Part shown: piece by piece, positions 2,283 to 13,277 of the stretch
Layout of the letters: every line of letters begins with the position of its first letter
Numbering within the stretch: position 1 is the first letter of the stretch
NCBI GenBank assembly: GCA_025462865.1
Contig: JAOAPI010000150.1
Location: forward strand, 62,001 to 126,000
DNA length: 64,000 nt
From: Candidatus Sulfotelmatobacter sp.
GTDB taxonomy: Bacteria > Acidobacteriota > Terriglobia > Terriglobales > Acidobacteriaceae
Direction of reading: 5' to 3'
The notes under the pieces: generated by a model
Seen by the model: the letters and a program-made list of their open reading frames with translations, nothing else
Database searches by the model: none
Told to the model about the DNA's origin: nothing
Made by a program: the position numbers and the translations under genes

Positions 2283-2462
2283 AATTCTTCGAGCCCGGGC
2301 CGCGCCCCACTCAATATTTTTTGCCGTTACCTCGGTAAGCTACTTAAAAGCCCCTAAGAACAATAGGATTTCAGTGAACAGGCTCGCCCGGACGTGTGCG
2401 TCGGAGATTTCCGCGCAGCGGGTGTCGTCTGTCGACTCCCCTGCGACAGAAGTAGTGACGCA

Positions 2463-4904
2463 ATGTCGACTCGGACAAAGCTATTTGTCGGGATTACTGT
2501 TTCGCTTGGAATGGCGGTGCTGTGCTCTGCTCTTTGGCGCTGGCAATCCGCTGATCTGACGCGATTTGTCTGCTATTTGATAGTCGCCGTCCTGGCTTCC
2601 AGCCTGAAGGTGCAACTGCCGGCAATCGACGGCACGATGTCAGTAAATTTCCTTTTCATTCTTCTTGGTGTAATGGAGCTGAGCCTGCCCGAGACTCTGG
2701 CCATCGGGTGTACGGCAACTCTGGTACAAAGCGTTTGGCAGGCACGGAACCGCCCAGACCCGGTGAAAGTGCTATTCAACGTCTTCGGCATGATGGCGAA
2801 TGCCAGCGCACTGTGTTACGTGAGCTATCACTGGTTGAATGGAAAAATGGGGAACAACAGACCGGTTCTGCTGATAGTGGCGGCGCTGGTTTTTTTTCTC
2901 GCCAATACTCTTCCAATTTCCGTGGTCATTGCGCTGACAGAAAACAAGACTAGCCGCAAAGTATGGTCGGAGTGCTACTTCTGGTCATTTCCCTACTATC
3001 TGGTCGGAGCCGCCGCGGTTGGGTTGGTAGGAGTGGTGAACAGCCGCGCCGGCTGGCAGACTTCTCTGCTCGTCCTGCCGGTGATTTATTGGGTGTACCG
3101 CTCTTATCGCCTGTATCTGGGACGATTGGAGGCCGAGAAAGAGCGAGTGGAAGTTGAAAAGAGGCACGTTGAACAGATTGCATCGCTGAACATGCGTACC
3201 ATCGAGGCCCTCGCGCTGGCCATCGAAGCCAAGGACCACACCACGCATACGCATCTGCAACGTGTGCGGACCTACGCGGTAGAAATCGCCAAAGAAATTG
3301 GCCTTTCGCCCGATGAGATTGAGGCACTACGAGCCGCAGCCCTGCTGCATGACATTGGTAAACTCGCGGTGCCGGAGCACATCATCAACAAACCCGGGAA
3401 GTTGACTCCGGAAGAATTCGAGAAGATGAAAGTGCACCCGATCGTAGGTGCGGAAATCCTGGATCGAGTGGCATTCCCTTATCCGGTAGCACCGATAGTG
3501 CGCGCGCATCACGAGAGATGGGATGGCTCAGGATACCCTTCGGGCCTGATCGGCGAAGAGATCCCCATCGGAGCACGAATTCTTGCGGTCGTCGATTGCC
3601 TCGACGCGCTGGCTTCAGACCGGCAATATCGCCCAGCCATACCTCTCGATCACGCCATGGAAACGGTGAAGGAGAAGTCCGGAAAGTGGTTCGACCCGAA
3701 GGTGGTGGAGATTCTCGAGCGCCGCTACAAAGAACTGGAACGCACCGCGCAAGTCTCTGAGGACGGCTTCGCCCCCGCCGGATTCGCAAAGGATGTACGC
3801 GTGGAGCGCGGTCTCGCTCCGGCAACCGGATTCGAAAAGTGGGCCAACAATTCGCAGAACGAAACCGACTTCCTGACCTCAATTGCATCAGCCCGACACG
3901 AAGCTCAAGCCATGTTCGAGTTGAGCCAGGATCTTGGAAACTCACTCAGCCTCAGCGAAACACTTTCGGTTCTGTCGATGCGGCTCCGAAGACTTATTCC
4001 CTATGACTCTATTGCGGTATTCGTAAACCGCAATGGATGGTTGTTGCCGGAGCTGGTAAGCGGCGAAAATTTCCGCGTTTTGTCGTCGCTGAAAATCCGC
4101 GTCGGCGAAGGTTTGTGCGGCTGGGTGGCGGAGAATTGCAAACCCATCATCAACGGCAACCCGCAGGTGGAAGAAGGTTATGTCGCCGATCCAAAAACTG
4201 CCACGCTAGCTTCGGCTCTGGTGGTTCCGTTGCAGGGACTGAATGGCGTCGTCGGCGTCCTCGCCATGTATCACTCGAGTCTGGATGCTTTTACTCCAGA
4301 CCATTTGCGGATTCTCCTCGCAGTTGCCTCTAAGGTCGCTCTCTCAGTCGAAAACGCCCTCAAGTATCAGCAGGCGGAGAGTTCCGCGACTACAGACTTT
4401 CTCACCGGCCTGCCCAATGCGCGCTCGCTGTTTGTGCATCTGGCGCAGGAAGTGGCGCGCTGCCGCCGTATGAAGACTTCGCTCGCCGTAATGGTATGCG
4501 ATATCGACGGCCTCAAAAAAATTAACGACTCCTTCGGCCACCTCGAGGGAGACAAATTGCTGCGGGAGTTCAGCGTCCGCCTGAAAGATGCATGCCGCGG
4601 CTACGACTACGTTGCCCGCATGGGTGGCGATGAATTTGTAGTGATGGCACCCGGCCTTTCGGTTGAAGGTGCTGAGGAGAAAACCGGCCGCTTGAATCAG
4701 GCAGCCATTGATGCGGGACGGCATACCTGCGGTCGGGAAGTGATTACTTTGAGCGTAGGTACCGCTTTCTGTCCGGAGGATGGCTTTGACGTAGAAGCTT
4801 TGCTGGCTGAAGCCGACCGTCGCATGTACACCGTGAAGCAAACTCACCACGCCCAAAATGCAGCCAGCCAGGGCACCCTCGCACACGGCGCTTCAGGAAA
4901 ATAG
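2463..4904 (+). CDS. Membrane sensor HD-GYP-GAF-GGDEF protein (c-di-GMP phosphodiesterase/diguanylate cyclase)
   Basis: This 813-residue protein has both c-di-GMP turnover domains. The N-terminal ~215 residues are a multi-pass membrane sensor region. HD-GYP follows at about 240-430, with H296-D297 in HDIGK, HH at 349-350 and GYP at 357-359, so the metal site looks intact. A GAF domain (about 470-620) comes next. The GGDEF domain at about 640-800 has its active site at 721-725 and an RxxD inhibitory site five residues before it. The protein could therefore make and break c-di-GMP. The ATG at 2463 is chosen over an upstream ATG at 2394 because it directly precedes the first hydrophobic segment. 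Its sensor region is clearly related to the stand-alone protein at 11241. Its stop codon touches the start of the next gene, a peptide transporter permease. Confidence 0.93.
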   Translation: MSTRTKLFVGITVSLGMAVLCSALWRWQSADLTRFVCYLIVAVLASSLKVQLPAIDGTMSVNFLFILLGVMELSLPETLAIGCTATLVQSVWQARNRPDPVKVLFNVFGMMANASALCYVSYHWLNGKMGNNRPVLLIVAALVFFLANTLPISVVIALTENKTSRKVWSECYFWSFPYYLVGAAAVGLVGVVNSRAGWQTSLLVLPVIYWVYRSYRLYLGRLEAEKERVEVEKRHVEQIASLNMRTIEALALAIEAKDHTTHTHLQRVRTYAVEIAKEIGLSPDEIEALRAAALLHDIGKLAVPEHIINKPGKLTPEEFEKMKVHPIVGAEILDRVAFPYPVAPIVRAHHERWDGSGYPSGLIGEEIPIGARILAVVDCLDALASDRQYRPAIPLDHAMETVKEKSGKWFDPKVVEILERRYKELERTAQVSEDGFAPAGFAKDVRVERGLAPATGFEKWANNSQNETDFLTSIASARHEAQAMFELSQDLGNSLSLSETLSVLSMRLRRLIPYDSIAVFVNRNGWLLPELVSGENFRVLSSLKIRVGEGLCGWVAENCKPIINGNPQVEEGYVADPKTATLASALVVPLQGLNGVVGVLAMYHSSLDAFTPDHLRILLAVASKVALSVENALKYQQAESSATTDFLTGLPNARSLFVHLAQEVARCRRMKTSLAVMVCDIDGLKKINDSFGHLEGDKLLREFSVRLKDACRGYDYVARMGGDEFVVMAPGLSVEGAEEKTGRLNQAAIDAGRHTCGREVITLSVGTAFCPEDGFDVEALLAEADRRMYTVKQTHHAQNAASQGTLAHGASGK

Positions 4905-5777
4905 ATGAATAATCTGCGATGGAAAATTGGTGGGCATGCACTGGCGGTGGTAGCGACGCTACTGCTTGGAGGCCTGCTTTCTGCAACACTGGTGCGGCTC
5001 GCCCCTGGTTTCGACGCGGATGAGCGGGAGCTAGATCCGCACTTGAATACGCAGAGCGTGCAGGCATTACGCGAGGCGAGGCGGCACGAACATAACATCT
5101 TCCACTTTTATCTCTCGTACTTGAATCACTCACTACACGGAGACTTGGGCACTTCGCTAGCACTCGGCCAACCGGTGCGGACTTTGTTGGGTGATCGCTT
5201 GCCCCTCACTACACGCTTGCTGACCACTGGTCTCGGACTCGCGTGGATGTTGTCACTGACGCTGGCATTGAGCGCTGCCTGGCTGAGGCTTTCGATTTTC
5301 GATGTCTTCACCACCGTGGTGAGCGGAACTTTTCTCTGTATTCCGGCCGCGGTGCTGGCATTGCTATCGGTACTCTGGAATCTGCCGGGGTCGTTGGCGA
5401 TTGCGCTGATCGTTTTCCCTCGCACCTATCGATATGCCAGCAATCTGCTGGTGAAAGTTTATTCCCGGCCTCATATCCTTGCAGCGCGGGCGCGAGGTCT
5501 GGGAGAAGCACGCATCCTGTTCCGCCATGTAGTGCCTGTGGTCACGCCGCAGCTGCTAGCTGTCGCCGGAGTTTCCGTAAGCGTAGCTGTTGGAGCCGCA
5601 ATTCCCGTCGAAGCGTTGTGCGGATTGCCAGGGGTGGGACAACTGGCATGGCAAGCTGCGCTGGCACGCGATCTGCCCTTGCTGGTTAACATTACGATTC
5701 TGGTGACACTGGTAACCTTGCTGGCCAATTCCGCGGCAGATGTAATCGGTCATGTGGTCCAGAGGCGGGAAATATGA
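4905..5777 (+). CDS. Peptide/nickel-type ABC transporter permease (DppB-like)
   Basis: This inner-membrane permease has 290 residues, somewhat short for the DppB/OppB family (usually 300-340). An N-terminal membrane segment is followed by a periplasmic region containing a DLGTSL motif, as in DppB. Several membrane helices follow, with an EAA-type cytoplasmic loop (RARGLGEARILFRHVVP) that would dock on the ATPase. The ATG follows the TAG of the HD-GYP gene with no spacer, and the end overlaps the next permease by 4 bp. This implies one transcript and translational coupling. Substrate cannot be told from sequence; the family carries oligopeptides, nickel, opines and some sugars. Confidence 0.9.
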   Translation: MNNLRWKIGGHALAVVATLLLGGLLSATLVRLAPGFDADERELDPHLNTQSVQALREARRHEHNIFHFYLSYLNHSLHGDLGTSLALGQPVRTLLGDRLPLTTRLLTTGLGLAWMLSLTLALSAAWLRLSIFDVFTTVVSGTFLCIPAAVLALLSVLWNLPGSLAIALIVFPRTYRYASNLLVKVYSRPHILAARARGLGEARILFRHVVPVVTPQLLAVAGVSVSVAVGAAIPVEALCGLPGVGQLAWQAALARDLPLLVNITILVTLVTLLANSAADVIGHVVQRREI

Positions 5778-6580
5778 GCCTCGGGCGAAAACTTGCATGT
5801 GCGGCCTTAGTGCTTGTGATGAGTGCATCGGCGGCCGCCAACTGGCTGGCCCCCGCGGGTTACTCCAAACAATACCGCGAGGCTACGAATGCACCGCCGT
5901 CGCACACCCACTGGCTTGGCACGGATGAAATCGGGCGGGACCGCTTTGCCCGCGTTCTTTACGGCACGCGAATTTCCTTGCTGTTAGCTCCGGCAGCAGC
6001 GCTTCTTTCGACACTGATGGCGGCGTTTTTCGGAGGATTGGCAGGATATCTCGGCGGCGCCTGGGCTCGCACGGCGATGGCGGTGACCGATCTGTTCTTG
6101 TCGTTGCCCTGGTTGTTCCTGCTGATCGCGGCGCGGGCGCTGATGCCGCTAAATGTATCTCCGCTGATATCAGTACTGGTGACATTTCTGTTGCTGGGAC
6201 TTTTGGGCTGGACCACTGCGGCGCGAGTGCTTTGCACCACCGCCGCATCGCTGCGTACGTCAGATTTTGTAAGGCAAGCGCGAGCCGCGGGTCTCACCGG
6301 TCAAAGATTATTTTGGATGCATGTCGTACCGAATTTGAAGCCTGTCCTATACGCGCAATTTTGGATTTCAATTCCCGTCTTCATTTTGAGCGAAGCTAAC
6401 CTTGGGATCCTCGGATTGGGCGTTGCCGAACCCATGCCCTCTTGGGGAAGCCTGCTCAAAGAGCTGGAAGGCCTGGTTTCAGTTGGGGAGGAACCTTGGA
6501 AATTTGCGCCGTTGATTTTACTGGCGGTAGTGGTTACGTCGTTTCAGCTTTTGTTGTCCAAGCAAGAGGAGGCCGCGTGA
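5774..6580 (+). CDS. Peptide/nickel-type ABC transporter permease (DppC-like)
   Basis: This is the second inner-membrane subunit (268 residues) of the same importer. The N-terminal part has the DppC-type sequence HWLGTDEIGRDRFARVLYGTR, which is highly characteristic. It is followed by about five hydrophobic helices and the EAA loop RQARAAGLTGQRLFWMHVVP. The C-terminal part has the typical LGLGVAEPMPSWGSLL ending. The start overlaps the DppB-like stop as ATGA, and the end overlaps the GTG start of the binding protein, so the three genes are translationally coupled. Confidence 0.93.
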   Translation: MSLGRKLACAALVLVMSASAAANWLAPAGYSKQYREATNAPPSHTHWLGTDEIGRDRFARVLYGTRISLLLAPAAALLSTLMAAFFGGLAGYLGGAWARTAMAVTDLFLSLPWLFLLIAARALMPLNVSPLISVLVTFLLLGLLGWTTAARVLCTTAASLRTSDFVRQARAAGLTGQRLFWMHVVPNLKPVLYAQFWISIPVFILSEANLGILGLGVAEPMPSWGSLLKELEGLVSVGEEPWKFAPLILLAVVVTSFQLLLSKQEEAA

Positions 6581-8229
6581 AGCGTAAAGAGAGACAGTCG
6601 GAGATGATGGTAGCTCCCTGCTGGAAAGCAATCGCTGCGGCAATCATTTGCCTGGGATCTCTACTCGGATGCGCGACGGCTCAAGCCAGTGGTGAGCTGA
6701 AGTTTTGTCTCCGCACCGAACCGAAAACATTTAACCCCCTGAAGGTTGAAGACGAGGCCTCCGGCACTATCCGCTATTTGACTGGTGGCGTGTTGGTCCG
6801 AGTGAATCGCCAATCCCAGGAACTAGAGCCGGAGTTGGCGCAAACGTGGAAACTTTCTAAAGACGGGCGGCAAATATCATTTCACTTGCGCAGCGGACTA
6901 TCTTTCTCGGACGGCACGACTTTTTCCGCGGAGGACGTCGCTTACACAGTCCAGCAGTTGATGGACCCGGCGCTGCATTCGCCGACCGGCGACGCTTTTC
7001 GTTCGGGCACCGGAAATGTCGAAACTAAGATCCTGTCCCCTACGCAAATTTCGATCAGGTTCCCGGCCCCGGTGGCCGGACTGGATCGCCTCTTCGACCA
7101 GGTCGCAATTCTCTCTGGACATTCGCCAAAAAAAGAAATGGCGGTCCTGGGGCCGTTCATGGTGGCCGATTACAAAGCTGGATCCACAGTTCTGTTGAAG
7201 CGCAATCCCAACTACTGGAAGTCTGATGAACAAGGGCGCAAACTGCCTTATCTGGATTCCATACGGCTGGATATCCAGCCCAACCGCGATGTTGAGATGC
7301 TTCGTTTCAAGCGCGGAGAACTTGACCTGATCAATTCTCTTGATAGTGAATACTTCGATAAGCTGGCGACAACTTCGCCGCAACTGGTGCACGACGCGGG
7401 CGCGTCGCTGGATAGCGAGCAACTCTGGTTTAACGAAGTAGCCAAGTCTCCAATTCCAAAATACAAGAAGGCATGGTTCCATTCGGCCAATTTCCGGCGG
7501 GCGATTTCGGAAGCGATCAATCGCGAGGATCTAAGCCGCGTCGTTTTCCACGGGCATGCCCAGCCCGCAGCGGGACCGTTTTCGCCGGCCAATAAATTCT
7601 GGTTCAACGCAAAGCTCAAACCGCAAACCTATAGTCCCGACGGGGCGTTGAAGGCGCTGCAGTCCGATGGCTTCCGCATGGAGAACGGAACGCTCAAAGA
7701 TAAGGACGGCAATGAGGTTGTGTTTTCGATCATCACAAATGCGGGTAACAAATACCGCGAGCGTATGGCCGTGTTGATTCAGGAAGATTTACAGAAGATT
7801 GGCATCCACGTGAATGTGGTGACACTCGACTTCCCTTCCCTGATTGAACGCATGACGCAGAGCTTCGACTATGAAGCGATCCTCCTCGGACTGACCAACG
7901 TCGATCTGGATCCAAATGGCGAGATGAATGTGTGGCTGAGTTCCTCGGAGAATCACCAGTGGAATCCGCAGCAGAAAACTCCAGAAACTTCGTGGGAGGC
8001 GGAAATCGACCGCCAGATGCGGGCACAGGCTTCGTCGAGCGATTTGAAGAAACGCAAAGAGGCGTTCGACCGCGTGCAGGAAATCGTCGTTGATCAGGAA
8101 CCTTTCATCTTCCTGATTAACAAGAATGCACTTTCCGCGGTTTCAACCAGCGTGCACGGGGCGGCTCCGGTCATTCTGTCACCGCAAACATTCTGGAACG
8201 CAGAACGGCTGGCTGTATCAGCGAAATAG
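6577..8229 (+). CDS. ABC transporter substrate-binding lipoprotein, family 5 (DppA/OppA-like)
   Basis: This 550-residue protein captures the substrate outside the inner membrane for the adjacent permeases. The signal peptide ends in a lipobox-like SLLGC, so it is probably a lipoprotein. The mature part has family-5 features: EPKTFNPLK near the N-terminus, PELAQTWKLSKDGRQISFHLR, and DGTTFSAEDV. I chose the GTG at 6577 because a strong AGAGGAGG site sits a few bases upstream and the codon overlaps the preceding TGA. An ATG at 6604 is a possible alternative. The ligand is unknown, and the neighbourhood offers no metabolic genes that would reveal it. Confidence 0.92.
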   Translation: MKRKERQSEMMVAPCWKAIAAAIICLGSLLGCATAQASGELKFCLRTEPKTFNPLKVEDEASGTIRYLTGGVLVRVNRQSQELEPELAQTWKLSKDGRQISFHLRSGLSFSDGTTFSAEDVAYTVQQLMDPALHSPTGDAFRSGTGNVETKILSPTQISIRFPAPVAGLDRLFDQVAILSGHSPKKEMAVLGPFMVADYKAGSTVLLKRNPNYWKSDEQGRKLPYLDSIRLDIQPNRDVEMLRFKRGELDLINSLDSEYFDKLATTSPQLVHDAGASLDSEQLWFNEVAKSPIPKYKKAWFHSANFRRAISEAINREDLSRVVFHGHAQPAAGPFSPANKFWFNAKLKPQTYSPDGALKALQSDGFRMENGTLKDKDGNEVVFSIITNAGNKYRERMAVLIQEDLQKIGIHVNVVTLDFPSLIERMTQSFDYEAILLGLTNVDLDPNGEMNVWLSSSENHQWNPQQKTPETSWEAEIDRQMRAQASSSDLKKRKEAFDRVQEIVVDQEPFIFLINKNALSAVSTSVHGAAPVILSPQTFWNAERLAVSAK

Positions 8230-8305: not shown

Positions 8306-9148
8306 ATGGCGTTTAAGAACTCACAAGAGAAGACTTTGCTGTCGGCGCACATCTCTGTGCGTTACGCGGACAAGCCGGTCTTACGCGCAGTGCAGTTGAA
8401 GATTCAGTGCGGCGAAGTGCTGGGGCTGGTTGGGCAGAGTGGCTCTGGCAAGAGCACACTGGCCATGGCGATTCTTGGACTTCTCGAGAAAAAGCGCACA
8501 CACACCGAAGGCAACATCCGGTTTCAGGACTCCGAACTCCTACAGCTCTCAGAACGTGAGCTGCGAGCGTTGCGGGGACGAGCGATTGCACTGGTCTTAC
8601 AAAGCCCCTTGTCCTCCTTGAACCCGGCGCTCAAAATCCGAACCCAACTTAAGGAAGCATGGCGCGCTCACGCTTCGGGCACATCCGAAGAGTGCATGAC
8701 GGCGATCCGGGCGTGTATGGCGAGCGTTTCGCTGCCCTCCGACGACGAATTTCTTCGCAAGTATCCTTCACAGATGAGCGTGGGACAAGCGCAGCGCGTG
8801 CTCATCGCGATGGCGGTAATGCATCGTCCCGCGCTACTGATCGCGGACGAAGCGACCAGCGCGCTCGATGTGATCACGCAATCCGAAATTTTGGCGCTGT
8901 TCCGGCACCTGAACCGCTCCACGGGAATGGCGATTCTCTACATTTCTCATGATCTTGCATCGGTGGCGGGGATTTGCGACCGCATCGCCATTCTTCACCA
9001 GGGCGAAATCGTTGAGTGTGGGACCACGGAGCAAATCTTCACCAACCCGGGCCACAACTATACGCAGCGGTTGATGGCAGCGATTCCAAGAGTTCTGTCG
9101 GCGGGCGCTAACCCGCAACGGAAAAGCGAAGCTGCTGCCGCACGGTAA
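8306..9148 (+). CDS. Peptide-type ABC transporter ATP-binding protein (DppD-like)
   Basis: This is the ATPase of the importer (280 residues). Walker A is GQSGSGKST, the signature is a variant MSVGQAQRV in place of LSGGQ, Walker B is LLIADEATSALD, and the switch His lies in ISHDLAS. The C-terminal NPGHNYTQRLMAAIP region is typical of the oligopeptide ATPase family. It lies 76 bp after the binding-protein gene on the same strand. Only one ATPase gene is present, whereas many Dpp/Opp systems have two (D and F). It may act as a homodimer or pair with a partner elsewhere. Confidence 0.92.
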   Translation: MAFKNSQEKTLLSAHISVRYADKPVLRAVQLKIQCGEVLGLVGQSGSGKSTLAMAILGLLEKKRTHTEGNIRFQDSELLQLSERELRALRGRAIALVLQSPLSSLNPALKIRTQLKEAWRAHASGTSEECMTAIRACMASVSLPSDDEFLRKYPSQMSVGQAQRVLIAMAVMHRPALLIADEATSALDVITQSEILALFRHLNRSTGMAILYISHDLASVAGICDRIAILHQGEIVECGTTEQIFTNPGHNYTQRLMAAIPRVLSAGANPQRKSEAAAAR

Positions 9149-9398
9149 ACGACGTCTCCAATCCTTTTTTCCCTGCCAGTAACTAACCGAAGTAACCATT
9201 GCGGAATTGCGGGACAAACTGTCCCGCGCCCCACCCAGCAGGACAGACTGGCCCACCCTGCACCCAGTGACGGCTTTTATCTCCAATGATTGCAAAGGTT
9301 TACGAGCAAGCGATTGGCCTTGCCCGTGCATAACAGCATGTGGGTCTAAGCATTACTGTGCTCTACATTCGTTCTTGCGCTTGGGAAGGGTGAGATTC

Positions 9399-11207
9399 AT
9401 GTCGAAGATACTGAAACCTAAAAGGCCGGACCGGGGGCAGCGCCACAGCGCCGCTTGGGGAAAGCGCCTGAGCATGCTGTTGCTGATCCTGATCGCGGAA
9501 GCCGCATTCGCCCAGCATGGGGGCAATGGTCGGGGAGTTGGCAAGTTCGCAGATGATCTTGCGCCCGCTGTGGCGCGAGCCCATCACGGTAAGGCCGGCG
9601 TCCAGACCGTAAGAGTTATCGTGCAATACCAGAACGTGCCTCAAGCGAGGCATGAGCGCCGGATGCAGGGTCTGGGCGCGCACCTGAATCACAGGCTTGG
9701 CACGGTGAAGGCGATTGCCCTCACCATTCCAGTCAGCGCACTACCTGCACTGGAAGCTGACCCCGAGATTCTCTCCGTAAGCATCGACCATCCGCTGAAT
9801 GGGGCGGACGATTATACGGACGCGGCAGCTAACGTTAGCGCTGCCTGGAATGCTGGATTCACCGGCACTGGAGTCGGCGTCGCGGTGATTGATAGCGGCA
9901 TCAACGATAGTCACGCCGACTTGTGGGATTCAACCCAGTCGTATTCGCGGGTGGTTTATCGCCAGGACTTTACTGGCACGGCAACTTCAAACGCGAATGG
10001 GGCGCGATATGACTTGTACGGACACGGGACCCACGTTGCCGGCATTATCGGCGGCAACGGCTACCTTTCGGCGGGACGGTTTGCCGGCGTAGCTCCCAGT
10101 GTTAACTTCGTTGATCTGCGCGCGCTCGATGCCAACGGCTCCGGCAGCGACGGCAGCGTAATCGCGGCTATCCAAGAAGCGATTGCGTTGAAAGATACCT
10201 ACAACATTCGCGTCATCAACCTGTCGTTGGGACGCGGCATCCCTATCAGCTACACGCAAGATCCTTTGTGCCAAGCGGTGGAAGCCGCCTGGAAAAGCGG
10301 GATCGTGGTGGTAGTGGCGGCAGGCAACTATGGCCGTTTGAGCGTCAACGGCAGCAACGGCTTCGGAACGATCACGGCGCCAGGAAACGATCCCTTTGTC
10401 CTGACCGTGGGCGCGATGAAGTCCATGAACACGTACGCTCGCGTCGACGACCAGAAAGCCAGCTTCAGTTCCAAGGGGCCCACTACCTACGATCACGTGG
10501 TAAAACCCGATATGGTGGCTTCTGGAAATGCTGTCGTTTCGCTCGCGGCTACTGGCGCAATGTTGGAGGCAACATATCCGCAGGCGCTGGTTGCGGGGAC
10601 TGACGGGAACAACGAATATTTCACGCTTAGCGGCACCAGCATGGCAACGCCGGCAGTCAGCGGCGCCGTGGCCCTGATGCTGCAAGAAGATAGCTCGTTG
10701 ACTCCCGACCAAGTGAAGGCGCGGTTGATGAAAACGGCATACAAACGATTTCCTCAATCGTCCATCTCTTCAGTGCCGCATTTAGGGCGAACCTTCACCG
10801 AGTTCTATGACCTTCTGTCGATAGGTGCCGGCTACCTGGATGTACAGGCGGCGCTGGCTAACAACGATCGGGCACCGGGAACAGTCGGATCCGCTCTGTC
10901 GCCATCGGCAGTTTACAACTCGGTAACGCATACCGTCTCATTGAGCAACGGAAACTCGGTGGTTCTGCCCAACTCCGTGGTTTGGGGGACATCGGTGGTT
11001 TGGGGAACATCGGTGGTTTGGGGCGCGAACGTAAATGGCAGCTCCGTGGTCTGGGGTTGCTCGCTTCCCTGGAATGACAACATGCTGAGCGCCTTCAGTG
11101 TGGTTTGGGGCGCGAGCACGGGCACTTCAGCCACCAGCGTGGTTTGGGGTGCGTCAGACTTGGCTAGCAACAGTGCGTTCTCCGATGCAGGAGACGATGA
11201 ACAGTAA
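9399..11207 (+). CDS. Secreted subtilisin-like serine protease (S8) with SVVWG-repeat tail
   Basis: This 602-residue protein starts at an ATG preceded by GAAGGG. An N-terminal hydrophobic segment (MLLLILIAEAAFA) is a likely signal peptide. A propeptide of roughly 100 residues resembling inhibitor I9 follows. The catalytic domain has Asp165 (VAVIDSG), His212 (GHGTHVAG) and Ser414 (GTSMATP), plus AAGN for the oxyanion Asn, so it should be active. After the catalytic domain, residues about 526-584 carry six SVVWG motifs; the last ~18 residues are acidic and Ser/Asp-rich. A membrane-protein gene starts 33 bp downstream with its own AGAGAGGAG site, so the two are probably co-transcribed. What the tail does is unknown. 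Confidence 0.93.
   Translation: MSKILKPKRPDRGQRHSAAWGKRLSMLLLILIAEAAFAQHGGNGRGVGKFADDLAPAVARAHHGKAGVQTVRVIVQYQNVPQARHERRMQGLGAHLNHRLGTVKAIALTIPVSALPALEADPEILSVSIDHPLNGADDYTDAAANVSAAWNAGFTGTGVGVAVIDSGINDSHADLWDSTQSYSRVVYRQDFTGTATSNANGARYDLYGHGTHVAGIIGGNGYLSAGRFAGVAPSVNFVDLRALDANGSGSDGSVIAAIQEAIALKDTYNIRVINLSLGRGIPISYTQDPLCQAVEAAWKSGIVVVVAAGNYGRLSVNGSNGFGTITAPGNDPFVLTVGAMKSMNTYARVDDQKASFSSKGPTTYDHVVKPDMVASGNAVVSLAATGAMLEATYPQALVAGTDGNNEYFTLSGTSMATPAVSGAVALMLQEDSSLTPDQVKARLMKTAYKRFPQSSISSVPHLGRTFTEFYDLLSIGAGYLDVQAALANNDRAPGTVGSALSPSAVYNSVTHTVSLSNGNSVVLPNSVVWGTSVVWGTSVVWGANVNGSSVVWGCSLPWNDNMLSAFSVVWGASTGTSATSVVWGASDLASNSAFSDAGDDEQ
10974..11150 (+). repeat. Six SVVWG-coding repeats at the 3' end of the subtilase gene
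   Basis: Six 15-base units encode SVVWG, at 10974-10988, 10992-11006, 11010-11024, 11043-11057, 11097-11111 and 11136-11150. The first three are in tandem with an 18-base period and a single Thr codon between units. The later three are separated by 6 to 13 residues. Codons differ between copies (gtt/gtc, tcc/tcg/agt/agc), so the protein motif appears conserved rather than freshly duplicated DNA. Confidence 0.9.
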
Positions 11208-11240
11208 GCCGTGGTCAATTAATTCAGAGAGGAGAAGATT

Positions 11241-11972
11241 ATGAATCGCAATACACGGCTAACGAAAACGTTCATCGGAGTGATGGTTCTGGCGGCGACT
11301 GCAAGTAGTGCATATGCCAGCCTGGCCAGCCACACCCTGCATACGTCTTATGCCCTGGCGATCCTGGCTTTAGCGGCGGCAACGTCGCGCATGAAGATCA
11401 AGCTGCCGGGCATTGACGGAAACATGTCAGTCAACCTGCCATTCCTGTTAATGGCTGTAGTAAATCTGAGTGCGATGGAAGCGGTGGTGGTTGCAAGCAT
11501 CTCAACGATGGTGCAGTGCTGGCCTAAACTGGATGCAAAATTCAAGCCGGAACAGATGCTGTTTAACGTCAGCATGATGGCGTTCGCAACCAGCATGGCG
11601 AATTTTATCTGGAACGCCGGATGGCTTGGAAAGGGCGCGTGGGCATCGGAACCTTTGATGTTGGCTTCCGCAACCGCTGCGTTCTTCGTGGGGCAGACGG
11701 CACCCGTGGCTGGCATCATCAAGCTGGCCGAGGGAGCTGCAATGCGCCGCATCTGGTTGGGGATCGTGCAACTGTCATTTCCCTACTATGTACTTAGCGC
11801 TGGAATGACCTCAATGGTGAACCTGGTAAGCCATCATTTCGGATGGCAGGCCGCCTTGGTAATCTTTCCCGTGATGTTTGGCGTCCATCTCTCGTACCGG
11901 TTGTACTTCGGACGAGCGGTGGAATCTTTACGCACTGCGCCGTTGGCAAGAACCGCCAGCGTAGGAGTCTAA
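11241..11972 (+). CDS. Multi-pass membrane protein, stand-alone homologue of the HD-GYP sensor domain
   Basis: This 243-residue protein has about six to eight hydrophobic segments and no catalytic domain. It aligns along its length with the N-terminal region of the HD-GYP-GAF-GGDEF protein at 2463: KLPGIDGNMSVNLPFLLM matches QLPAIDGTMSVNFLFILL, EQMLFNVSMMA matches VKVLFNVFGMM, and LSFPYYVLSAG matches WSFPYYLVGAA. Both also end in SYRLYFGR or SYRLYLGR. Here the chain stops about 14 residues after that motif. It starts 33 bp after the subtilase and shares its strand. I cannot name a function: it could be a sensor subunit, a partner of the protease or its substrate. Confidence 0.85.
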   Translation: MNRNTRLTKTFIGVMVLAATASSAYASLASHTLHTSYALAILALAAATSRMKIKLPGIDGNMSVNLPFLLMAVVNLSAMEAVVVASISTMVQCWPKLDAKFKPEQMLFNVSMMAFATSMANFIWNAGWLGKGAWASEPLMLASATAAFFVGQTAPVAGIIKLAEGAAMRRIWLGIVQLSFPYYVLSAGMTSMVNLVSHHFGWQAALVIFPVMFGVHLSYRLYFGRAVESLRTAPLARTASVGV

Positions 11973-12031
11973 GATAAGGTCGGCTACCGGATACCCGGTC
12001 GTCGACGGCACGAAATATTGGTAATCAACGT

Positions 12032-12063
12032 GGCGTTCCGGCCCAACCGGAACGCCATTTTTT
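12032..12063 (+). terminator. Rho-independent terminator after the subtilase/membrane-protein pair
   Basis: A perfect 10-bp stem, GGCGTTCCGG (12032-12041) with CCGGAACGCC (12047-12056) around a CCCAA loop, is followed by A and six T residues. It lies 60 bp after the membrane-protein stop codon. This is the cleanest intrinsic terminator in the window. Confidence 0.9.
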
Positions 12064-12164
12064 CGTCTCGCACCGCTCGGGGCGGGATGCTTGCAACGGA
12101 CAGGAATTGGACAACCTGGTGACAATTTCTTGACAACCTCGAAAAGACGGCAGCCTAGTATTGC

Positions 12165-12199
12165 GACCATCCGAAGTCGGATAGTGAGGACCATCCGAA
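12165..12199 (+). repeat. 11-bp direct repeat upstream of the TIGR03118 gene
   Basis: GACCATCCGAA occurs at 12165-12175 and 12189-12199, 24 bp apart. The first copy also forms the inverted repeat ATCCGA-AG-TCGGAT. It lies about 60-90 bp before the start at 12258, where a regulator could bind. A TTGACA at 12130-12135 lies nearby, but its best -10 match (TAGTAT, 12156-12161) is 20 bp away, so a promoter is only tentative. Confidence 0.4.
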
Positions 12200-12257
12200 A
12201 CTCTCAGACAACGATTCGGGATTCCCACTCGCAATACATCACTAAGGAGAAAATCGC

Positions 12258-13277
12258 ATGCGGCGTCTGCTCAGTTGCAATCACGTCCTCACCTCGCTTC
12301 TGGGGCTTGTGCTGGTGTTGGCATCCAGCTCTGCCCTGGCACAGTATCAAGCAACCTATCTAGACTCGGATCTGTCGGGCAAAGCCCTGCATACGGATCC
12401 CCTGCTGAAAAATGCCTGGGGACTTGCTTACAGCCCAGGCGCAGCTTTTTGGATCAGCGACGAGGCTAGCGGCTGGTCCACTTTGTATGACGGTAAGGGA
12501 AACCCGCAAAGTCTGCAGGTGGTCATTCCTCCCGCCACTGGTACCGGGCAAGGAACACCCACGGGCATCGTCTACAACGGCTCGACAGAATTCAAAATTC
12601 GAAACTGGACGTCGGTATTTCTGTTTGCCACTCTAGATGGAACTATCAGCGGTTGGTCCGCATTCAATCCCAATGCGGCGCTCATCGGTGTAACTAGTCC
12701 GGGCGCGGTCTACACCGGCCTGGCCATCACCAGCAAGCCTTCGGGAAATTTCCTGTTCGCCGCCGACGCCGCCAACAATAAGGTCGATGTCTACGACGGC
12801 AATTTCAATCTGGTGAAATCCTTCACCGATCCGGCCATTCCCGCGGGTTTCGCTCCGTTCGGAATTCAGGACATTAAGGGCAAGGTTTACGTTTCGTTTG
12901 CCAGTTCGTCGGGTGGCACGGGTGGCTTCATCGATATTTTTGGCGAAGATGGCACTTTGGTGAGACATCTTTCGCACGGGGCACCGCTGAACCAGCCATG
13001 GGGTTTCGCAGTGGCTCCCTCAAACTTTGGTCCGCTCAGCAATACGCTGCTGATCTCGAATAATACGTCCGCAGGCACCATCAACGGATTCAGCCTTAGC
13101 ACCGGAAAGCTCGTGGGCACGATAAAGAATTCGGCCGGCACGCCAATCACGATCAAGGGATTATGGGGAATCGAGTTCGGAGGCGGGTCGTCAGCAAATG
13201 GCCAACGAAATCAGCTTTTCTTTACCGCCGGTCCTAACGACACTGATGGCTACTTTGGGTTGATCGCTTTCAAATAA
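12258..13277 (+). CDS. TIGR03118 family secreted protein
   Basis: This 339-residue protein has a clear signal peptide ending near SSALAQ. A six-bladed-propeller-like repeat structure follows, with the phrases NAWGLAYSPGAAFWISDE, PTGIVYNG and FATLDGTISGW that mark the TIGR03118 family. The family is exported and uncharacterised; some members in other bacteria carry a PEP-CTERM signal, but this one ends in LIAFK without it. The ATG is preceded by AAGGAG at good spacing. The gene stands alone between two terminators. Confidence 0.85.
   Translation: MRRLLSCNHVLTSLLGLVLVLASSSALAQYQATYLDSDLSGKALHTDPLLKNAWGLAYSPGAAFWISDEASGWSTLYDGKGNPQSLQVVIPPATGTGQGTPTGIVYNGSTEFKIRNWTSVFLFATLDGTISGWSAFNPNAALIGVTSPGAVYTGLAITSKPSGNFLFAADAANNKVDVYDGNFNLVKSFTDPAIPAGFAPFGIQDIKGKVYVSFASSSGGTGGFIDIFGEDGTLVRHLSHGAPLNQPWGFAVAPSNFGPLSNTLLISNNTSAGTINGFSLSTGKLVGTIKNSAGTPITIKGLWGIEFGGGSSANGQRNQLFFTAGPNDTDGYFGLIAFK

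What the first reader, a model, noticed from the sequence alone, without database searches (positions are those of the whole stretch)
9399..11972. Subtilase with six SVVWG motifs and a co-transcribed sensor-like membrane protein
A secreted S8 protease with an intact triad (D165, H212, S414) ends in six SVVWG motifs whose codons vary while the residues stay fixed, which suggests selection on the peptide. The next gene, 33 bp away, encodes a multi-pass membrane protein without a catalytic domain, and a strong terminator closes the pair. Repeated short C-terminal motifs paired with a dedicated membrane partner recall sorting systems such as PEP-CTERM with exosortase. Whether this tail is a sorting tag, an anchor or an interaction motif is inference.
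Basis: partly seen in the sequence, partly recalled or inferred. Interest (0 to 1): 0.7.

Follow-up and report, generated by a model that had tools for sequence, protein, structure and literature searches.

The report
Repeat-tailed protease with membrane sensor partner
A soil bacterium makes a secreted protein-cutting enzyme whose tail repeats one short motif, encoded beside a membrane protein of a sensor family whose trigger is unknown; the same pairing recurs across the bacterium's phylum, so the tail is a candidate trigger for that sensor.

Summary
In detail: a secreted S8 subtilase (9399-11207) with six SVVWG motifs, a membrane gene 33 bp downstream, and a terminator. The partner is a lone MASE9 domain (PF20972), a sensor domain otherwise seen fused to c-di-GMP enzymes; its AlphaFold model matches ECF-transporter S components best. 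The linkage is widespread. Of 75 VVWG-tailed subtilases with at least 1500 nt downstream, 47 have MASE9 immediately after on the same strand. Of 23 phylum genomes with such arrays, 22 carry MASE9, against 54 of 373 without. In the genomes examined, one subtilase subfamily carries the tail and lies near MASE9 (20 of 46, against 0 of 39 others). Motifs differ between proteins but are nearly uniform within each, while codons vary. A peptide-type ABC importer is a third, less constant neighbour, present here. The PEP-CTERM-like sorting reading is not supported. Best reading, largely inferred: tail motifs, displayed or clipped off, are what MASE9 senses, coupling extracellular proteolysis to c-di-GMP. 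Against it: motif type does not track MASE9 beyond the catalytic domain, and many tailed subtilases stand alone. The papers searched hold nothing on SVVWG tails or MASE9.

The parts
2394..4904 (+). MASE9 domain fused to HD-GYP (HD_5), GAF and GGDEF domains: predicted c-di-GMP sensor enzyme at the head of the gene run (start codon uncertain)
   Evidence: Pfam scan (MASE9 21.7 bits, under the cut-off); a MASE9 hit 9-11 kb upstream of the lone MASE9 also in G010, G011, G013 and G018; neighbours
4905..5777 (+). DppB-like ABC permease
   Evidence: BPD_transp_1 E 4e-19
5774..6580 (+). DppC-like ABC permease
   Evidence: BPD_transp_1 E 2e-14
6619..8229 (+). family-5 (oligopeptide-type) solute-binding protein; start codon uncertain (longest ORF from 6442)
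   Evidence: SBP_bac_5 E 3e-69
8306..9148 (+). DppD/F-type ABC ATPase
   Evidence: ABC_tran E 1e-27, oligo_HPY E 3e-6
9399..11207 (+). secreted S8 subtilase: signal peptide about aa 1-38 (by eye), propeptide-like region about aa 70-135 (inferred from the model and its pro-subtilisin matches), Peptidase_S8 match 156-450
10974..11204 (+). tail with six SVVWG motifs (aa 526-584) and a conserved acidic end (AGDDEQ); mostly under pLDDT 50 in the model
11241..11972 (+). lone MASE9 membrane protein, ECF-S-component-like predicted fold, no output domain found
12030..12058 (+). intrinsic terminator

Best explanation
The pair is one copy of a recurring Acidobacteriota module that couples extracellular proteolysis to c-di-GMP. 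SHOWN by sequence: an exported subtilase of one subfamily carries a tail of repeated, array-specific x-phi-phi-W-G motifs; a MASE9 membrane domain (ECF-S-component-like in the model) is often its immediate neighbour, alone or fused to HD-GYP, GGDEF or EAL output; a Dpp/Opp-type peptide importer is a third recurring neighbour, and here all three lie in one run of same-strand genes. INFERRED: the tail motif is what MASE9 binds. The motif may be displayed on the enzyme, or released as short peptides by cutting at the Trp-Gly bond, a plausible site because subtilisins accept aromatic P1 residues (recalled). Fused MASE9 proteins turn occupancy into c-di-GMP change, the lone MASE9 acts as a capture, tuning or retention subunit, and the importer recycles or clears the peptides.
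For: Adjacency: 47 of 75 testable tailed subtilases have MASE9 directly downstream on the same strand; of the 50 with any MASE9 in the stretch, 32 have a frame-to-frame distance of -3 to 45 nt. Subfamily S8 within 5 kb of MASE9: 20 of 46, against 0 of 39 other S8 (p 6e-7). Genome co-occurrence: 22 of 23 against 54 of 373 (p 2e-16), and p 1e-4 when shuffled within families. Adjacency sits in several deep clades of a quick S8 tree (12 changes). MASE9 model pLDDT 90.8; Foldseek ranks 1-15 are chains of ECF-type transporters, chiefly S components, which bind small ligands. In 130 arrays the motif's first residue is nearly uniform within each (entropy 0.15 against 1.58 shuffled), with codon diversity 0.53 against 0.63 elsewhere in the gene. 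Importer genes lie within 5 kb in 7 of 20 S8+MASE9 loci. A natural experiment: five genus paralogues with no MASE9 in the stretch fetched, grouping inside the window's clade, keep only 2-3 motifs and lack the AGDDEQ end.
Against: No physical interaction was tested. Tail motif type does not track MASE9 once the S8 catalytic domain is accounted for (partial Mantel r 0.085, p 0.097; 62 pairs); it tracks the catalytic domain (0.40, p 0.0005). 23 of 26 subfamily S8 with no MASE9 within 5 kb keep at least 3 motifs (six of the 26 abut a contig end within 1 kb), and 2 of 20 beside MASE9 have fewer than 3. 25 of 75 testable arrays have no MASE9 in the stretch. One array genome, G448, has no MASE9 hit. 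The importer also lies near 5 of 26 lone S8, so it may go with the protease and not the sensor. The lone MASE9 has no output domain. No Foldseek E-value passes 0.001. Sampled genomes are related and the 24 genomes behind one search were picked as MASE9 carriers, so p-values are optimistic.
Confidence: 0.42

Rival explanations
1. Docking or inside-out control, like LapD/LapG (recalled): MASE9 holds the intact protease at the outer face of the inner membrane through the tail, and c-di-GMP inside decides its release. The lone MASE9 is a constitutive anchor.
For: Same linkage data. A tail with many copies suits multivalent binding. A c-di-GMP enzyme carries the same domain.
Against: No evidence of retention. 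MASE9 is nearly all helix in the model, with no separate periplasmic module. It does not explain the importer.
Confidence: 0.22
2. The tail serves the protease alone: surface, matrix or substrate binding, or self-assembly. MASE9 is a neighbour only because c-di-GMP governs the same lifestyle.
For: Tails persist on 23 of 26 lone subfamily S8; motif type follows the catalytic domain.
Against: Does not explain the output-less lone MASE9 immediately downstream in 43 of 75 testable loci, nor tail decay in the paralogues without MASE9.
Confidence: 0.25
3. Sorting or anchoring signal processed by the membrane partner, as the first reader proposed (PEP-CTERM/exosortase-like).
For: Short conserved C-terminal motifs on exported enzymes next to one membrane family.
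Against: The partner is a sensor-family domain with an S-component-like predicted fold; no terminal hydrophobic helix or basic cluster; S8 is the only enzyme family identified with the tail; exosortase hits sit elsewhere in the genome.
Confidence: 0.06

Closest known systems
MASE9 sensor domain (PF20972)
   Same: Residues 48-219 align to profile positions 38-196 of 203; the domain lies N-terminal to HD-GYP, GGDEF or EAL in relatives.
   Different: Here it is alone, without any output domain found, and paired with a protease.
ECF transporter S components (RibU, BioY, ThiT, FolT)
   Same: Predicted fold: Foldseek ranks 1-15 are chains of ECF-type transporters, chiefly S components; RibU 3p5n TM 0.72 by target length. 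Weak ECF-ribofla_trS sequence hits in 2 of the MASE9 proteins scanned.
   Different: No CbiQ/EcfT subunit found in the genome; best Foldseek E-value 4e-3; eight helical segments in the model against six transmembrane helices in S components (recalled).
Subtilases with propeptide (Tk-SP, pro-subtilisin)
   Same: Catalytic domain, triad and a propeptide-like N-terminal region.
   Different: The Trp-rich repeat tail lies outside the Peptidase_S8 match (aa 156-450) and no Pfam model covers it.
LapD/LapG c-di-GMP-controlled periplasmic protease (recalled)
   Same: An exported protease paired with a membrane c-di-GMP protein.
   Different: Different protease and receptor families (recalled).
Multi-copy peptide pheromone precursors with Opp import (recalled)
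   Same: Near-identical short units in one exported precursor, and a peptide importer nearby.
   Different: The precursor is itself the protease; no cytoplasmic peptide receptor was looked for.

Membership tests
Peptidase S8 (subtilase) | S8 domain with Asp/His/Ser triad | tested here: met
   PF00082 E 5e-53; D165, H212, S414 invariant in 44 sequences
MASE9 (PF20972) | profile score over the curated cut-off | tested here: inconclusive
   23.8 bits against 24.3; 63 of 396 phylum genomes hold a match over the cut-off, while neither match of the window's genome listed there reaches it
MASE9 (PF20972) | same domain as the N-terminal sensor of c-di-GMP enzymes | tested here: met
   the protein alone finds the MASE9 region of the 845-aa HD-GYP-GGDEF frame of its own genome at E 1e-35, 34% identity; alignments A1 and A3 hold such rows
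ECF transporter S component | S-component fold | tested here: met
   predicted model only; the best PDB matches are ECF S components, none under E 0.001
ECF transporter S component | partner T subunit (EcfT/CbiQ) in the genome | tested here: not met
   0 matches for PF02361; the control rang in 10 of 14 genomes
PEP-CTERM / exosortase | partner is an exosortase | tested here: not met
   only MASE9 is hit in Pfam, nothing in NCBIfam; exosortase hits at C62 and C57, the window being on C102
PEP-CTERM / exosortase | PEP-like motif, hydrophobic helix and basic cluster at the C-terminus (recalled) | tested here: not met
   tail mostly under pLDDT 50, ends SDAGDDEQ
LapD/LapG-type control | direct c-di-GMP-dependent binding of the protease | not testable with these tools
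   needs binding assays
Peptide pheromone system | released peptide with a cognate receptor and response | not testable with these tools
   only precursor-like repeats and a neighbouring importer seen

The most novel reading that the evidence does not exclude
A protease that is its own pheromone precursor: the subtilase cuts its tail (or that of a sister molecule) at Trp-Gly bonds, releasing short peptides of one array-specific sequence; an S-component-like MASE9 domain binds them and sets c-di-GMP, and the co-encoded Dpp importer clears them. The within-array letters would then be a private code separating paralogues in one genome, for example QIIWGD beside MASE9 against NIVWGN on the lone paralogues of G413; G375 does not fit so neatly, as a lone paralogue there shares HIVWGD/GVVWGD with those beside MASE9.
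Probability: 0.2. Interest if true: 0.93.

Novelty: new variant of a known kind. Interest (0 to 1): 0.72.

Why it matters
MASE-type membrane sensors head many c-di-GMP enzymes (recalled), and a 2022 review counts MASE1 among domains with no discernible physiological purpose (PMC8846402, passages seen), although a 2013 title and abstract tie the MASE1 of YfgF to aspartate responses (PMC3718329, listing). Here one such domain is linked, across many Acidobacteriota lineages, to a concrete candidate ligand: a short repeated motif that can be synthesised and tested. If true, it would also be a new way for soil bacteria to sense their own extracellular digestion.

Tried and rejected
Exosortase-like sorting: rejected on partner identity and tail end. 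A complete ECF transporter: no T subunit found. S8-MASE9 fusion as a Rosetta stone: none among the loci held. Coevolution of motif type with MASE9: not significant. A folded repeat tail (beta-helix): the model leaves 523-557 and 568-602 under pLDDT 50; not decisive, as the alignment is thin there. Near/far test over all S8 frames: 15 of 18 within 3 kb of MASE9 and 24 of 67 others have tails, but this mixes subfamilies, so it was redone by subfamily at 5 kb. Literature, listings only: SVVWG 3 papers and VVWG 28, none on this by title; MASE9 none; combined-term searches found no paper, one unrelated paper each, or six papers on other MASE or c-di-GMP proteins.

Rows left out. rests on 85 frames scoring at least 50 bits to my own S8 profile; S8 genes below that were dropped (several fetched stretches gave none). 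Of the 24 genomes, picked as MASE9 carriers, the S8 genes of G119 and G204, those of G010, G011 and G018, and the second listed S8 of G013 were not fetched; the list was itself cut. The five paralogues L100-L104 and the cut array of L088 are not. Stretches fetched for single S8 genes carry about 2.5 kb of flank, less at contig ends; I checked by eye against the coordinates that no MASE9 lies just beyond. The subfamily cut (195 bits) was set after seeing the scores; the nearest are 166 and 201. In one search the label of L100-L104 was set by hand; the absence of MASE9 there comes.

Full report
WHAT IS THERE. The subtilase gene runs 9399-11207 (602 aa) and carries a Peptidase_S8 domain. D165, H212 and S414 are invariant in 44 aligned sequences, the window's included. 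The AlphaFold model (mean pLDDT 67.7) resembles pro-subtilisins and leaves most of the tail under pLDDT 50. Six SVVWG motifs lie at aa 526-584. 33 bp later, 11241-11972 encodes a 243-aa membrane protein whose only Pfam hit is MASE9, half a bit under the cut-off. A terminator stands at 12030-12058; the promoter scan found none in 8500-12800, which says little. Upstream on the same strand lie a MASE9-HD-GYP-GAF-GGDEF protein, two Dpp-type permeases, a family-5 binding protein and an ABC ATPase.

THE MOTIF IS SELECTED. In 26 distinct genus tails, motif columns keep the majority residue at 99.2% and linker columns at 74.6%, while codons for the majority residue differ about equally (57.6% and 56.1% of pairs). 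The 26 were chosen for at least 4 motifs, which favours the motif columns. Across 130 subfamily arrays with at least 5 motifs, the motif's first residue is nearly uniform inside an array (entropy 0.15, against 1.58 when copies are dealt out at random) but differs between arrays; the Trp is fixed by the search itself. Forms seen include SVVWG, NIVWG, TLVWG, TIVWG, QIIWG and GVFWS. Codon diversity inside motifs is 0.53 against 0.63 for the same residues elsewhere in the gene, so recent duplication does not explain the uniformity in general, though some concerted evolution is not excluded and single arrays (L269, 0.18) may be recent. Related arrays share motifs, so the shuffle overstates the contrast between arrays.

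THE PARTNER. 39 of 61 near genomes hold a relative of the membrane protein, fused forms included, and 35 of 61 one of the protease. 115 have an array-bearing frame, 103 of them S8. 75 of the 103 have at least 1500 nt downstream; of these, 47 have MASE9 directly downstream on the same strand (43 of them lone MASE9), 50 have any MASE9 in the stretch and 25 have none. By record title (my count), 100 of the 103 are acidobacterial; the other three (L166, L190, L193) are titled as other taxa and were not checked. Of the 12 frames without an S8 hit, eight are in records not titled acidobacterial and four in acidobacterial ones (L140, L150, L199, L208); L150, which has MASE9 next to it, and L208 are cut by the stretch's edge. 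I did not resolve the 12.

CONTROLS. In the genomes fetched, tailed subtilases form one subfamily by profile score. 20 of 46 of its members lie within 5 kb of MASE9 and 41 of 46 have at least 3 motifs; for other S8 both counts are 0 of 39. At genome level, 22 of 23 genomes with VVWG or IVWG arrays carry MASE9, against 54 of 373 others (p 2e-16); shuffling within the five families that vary still gives p 1e-4. The exception is G448. On a quick 50-row S8 tree, MASE9 adjacency changes 12 times and appears in several deep clades.

NATURAL EXPERIMENT. Five genus paralogues (L100-L104) have no MASE9 in the fetched stretch nor within 5 kb. They form a clade (99) that groups with the MASE9-adjacent copy of G013 (94) inside the window's clade (100). 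They keep 2-3 motifs and end differently. A sixth, L050, has the same decayed tail but lies on a contig that also holds a MASE9 gene about 6 kb away, so it is not a clean case.

WHAT MASE9 LOOKS LIKE. The lone MASE9 model (pLDDT 90.8, pTM 0.86) has chains of ECF-type transporters, chiefly S components, at Foldseek ranks 1-15, although no E-value passes 0.001. Two MASE9 proteins give weak ECF-ribofla_trS hits. The genome shows no CbiQ/EcfT subunit. So the domain probably binds a small ligand and here is not part of an ECF transporter (inference).

THIRD NEIGHBOUR. Genes similar to the window's DppB, DppC or SBP5 proteins lie within 5 kb of 7 of 20 S8+MASE9 loci, 5 of 26 lone S8, 0 of 5 decayed paralogues and 2 of 25 MASE9 loci counted as lone. 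Of those two, one is the window-type operon of G013, whose own subtilase lies about 6 kb away, and the other is G051, whose two tailed subtilases lie some 40 kb away. Lone-S8 flanks were shorter, so the comparison is rough. No genome-wide background rate for this importer was measured.

MECHANISM. Shown: the architecture, the linkage, conservation of the motif, and the predicted folds. Inferred: that the motif is the MASE9 ligand, that it may be released by cutting at Trp-Gly, and that c-di-GMP responds. Against: motif type does not follow MASE9 beyond the catalytic domain (partial r 0.085, p 0.097) but does follow the catalytic domain (0.40, p 0.0005; 62 pairs), and lone tailed subtilases are common. 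The second result would also fit self-cutting, or simply common descent.

NOVELTY. Searches for SVVWG, VVWG and MASE9 in 5.39 million open papers returned nothing on this by title (listings). Two combined-term searches returned no paper, two one unrelated paper each, and one six papers on other MASE or c-di-GMP proteins, among them a MASE1-aspartate study (listing). A review lists MASE1 among domains with no discernible physiological purpose (PMC8846402, passages). Most subscription papers and all bioRxiv preprints are outside that library. The parts are known kinds; I found no description of the combination.

Noticed in passing
window 12258-13277: TIGR03118 (PEPCTERM_chp_1) family protein right after the terminator (E 1e-74), but its sequence ends without a PEP-CTERM tail (by eye).
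   Followed up: no
L085 5355-9435: Second module in the same genome: a MASE9-HD-GYP gene divergent from a subtilase with NVLWGT motifs.
   Followed up: partly
L321 6565-9444: A further MASE9 gene of the window's genome with HD-GYP- and GGDEF-like motifs and no subtilase hit nearby; frames of similar length with MASE9 occur in many same-genus genomes.
   Followed up: no
L298 2638-4692; L234 2263-4446: Tail variants near MASE9 with other repeats: DSIVWSGSLFGD and GVFWSD.
   Followed up: no
L269 2156-4054: Tail of 16 identical TLVWGD units running to the stop, in a single-contig genome; low codon diversity (0.18), so this one may be recent.
   Followed up: no
L085, L087, L096, L098, L277: Several tails end in G-E-N, G-E-Q or D-G-E; the window family ends AGDDEQ.
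   Followed up: no
L140, L199: Acidobacterial VVWG arrays in frames without a recognised S8 domain that are not cut by the stretch's edge: frameshift or another protein.
   Followed up: no
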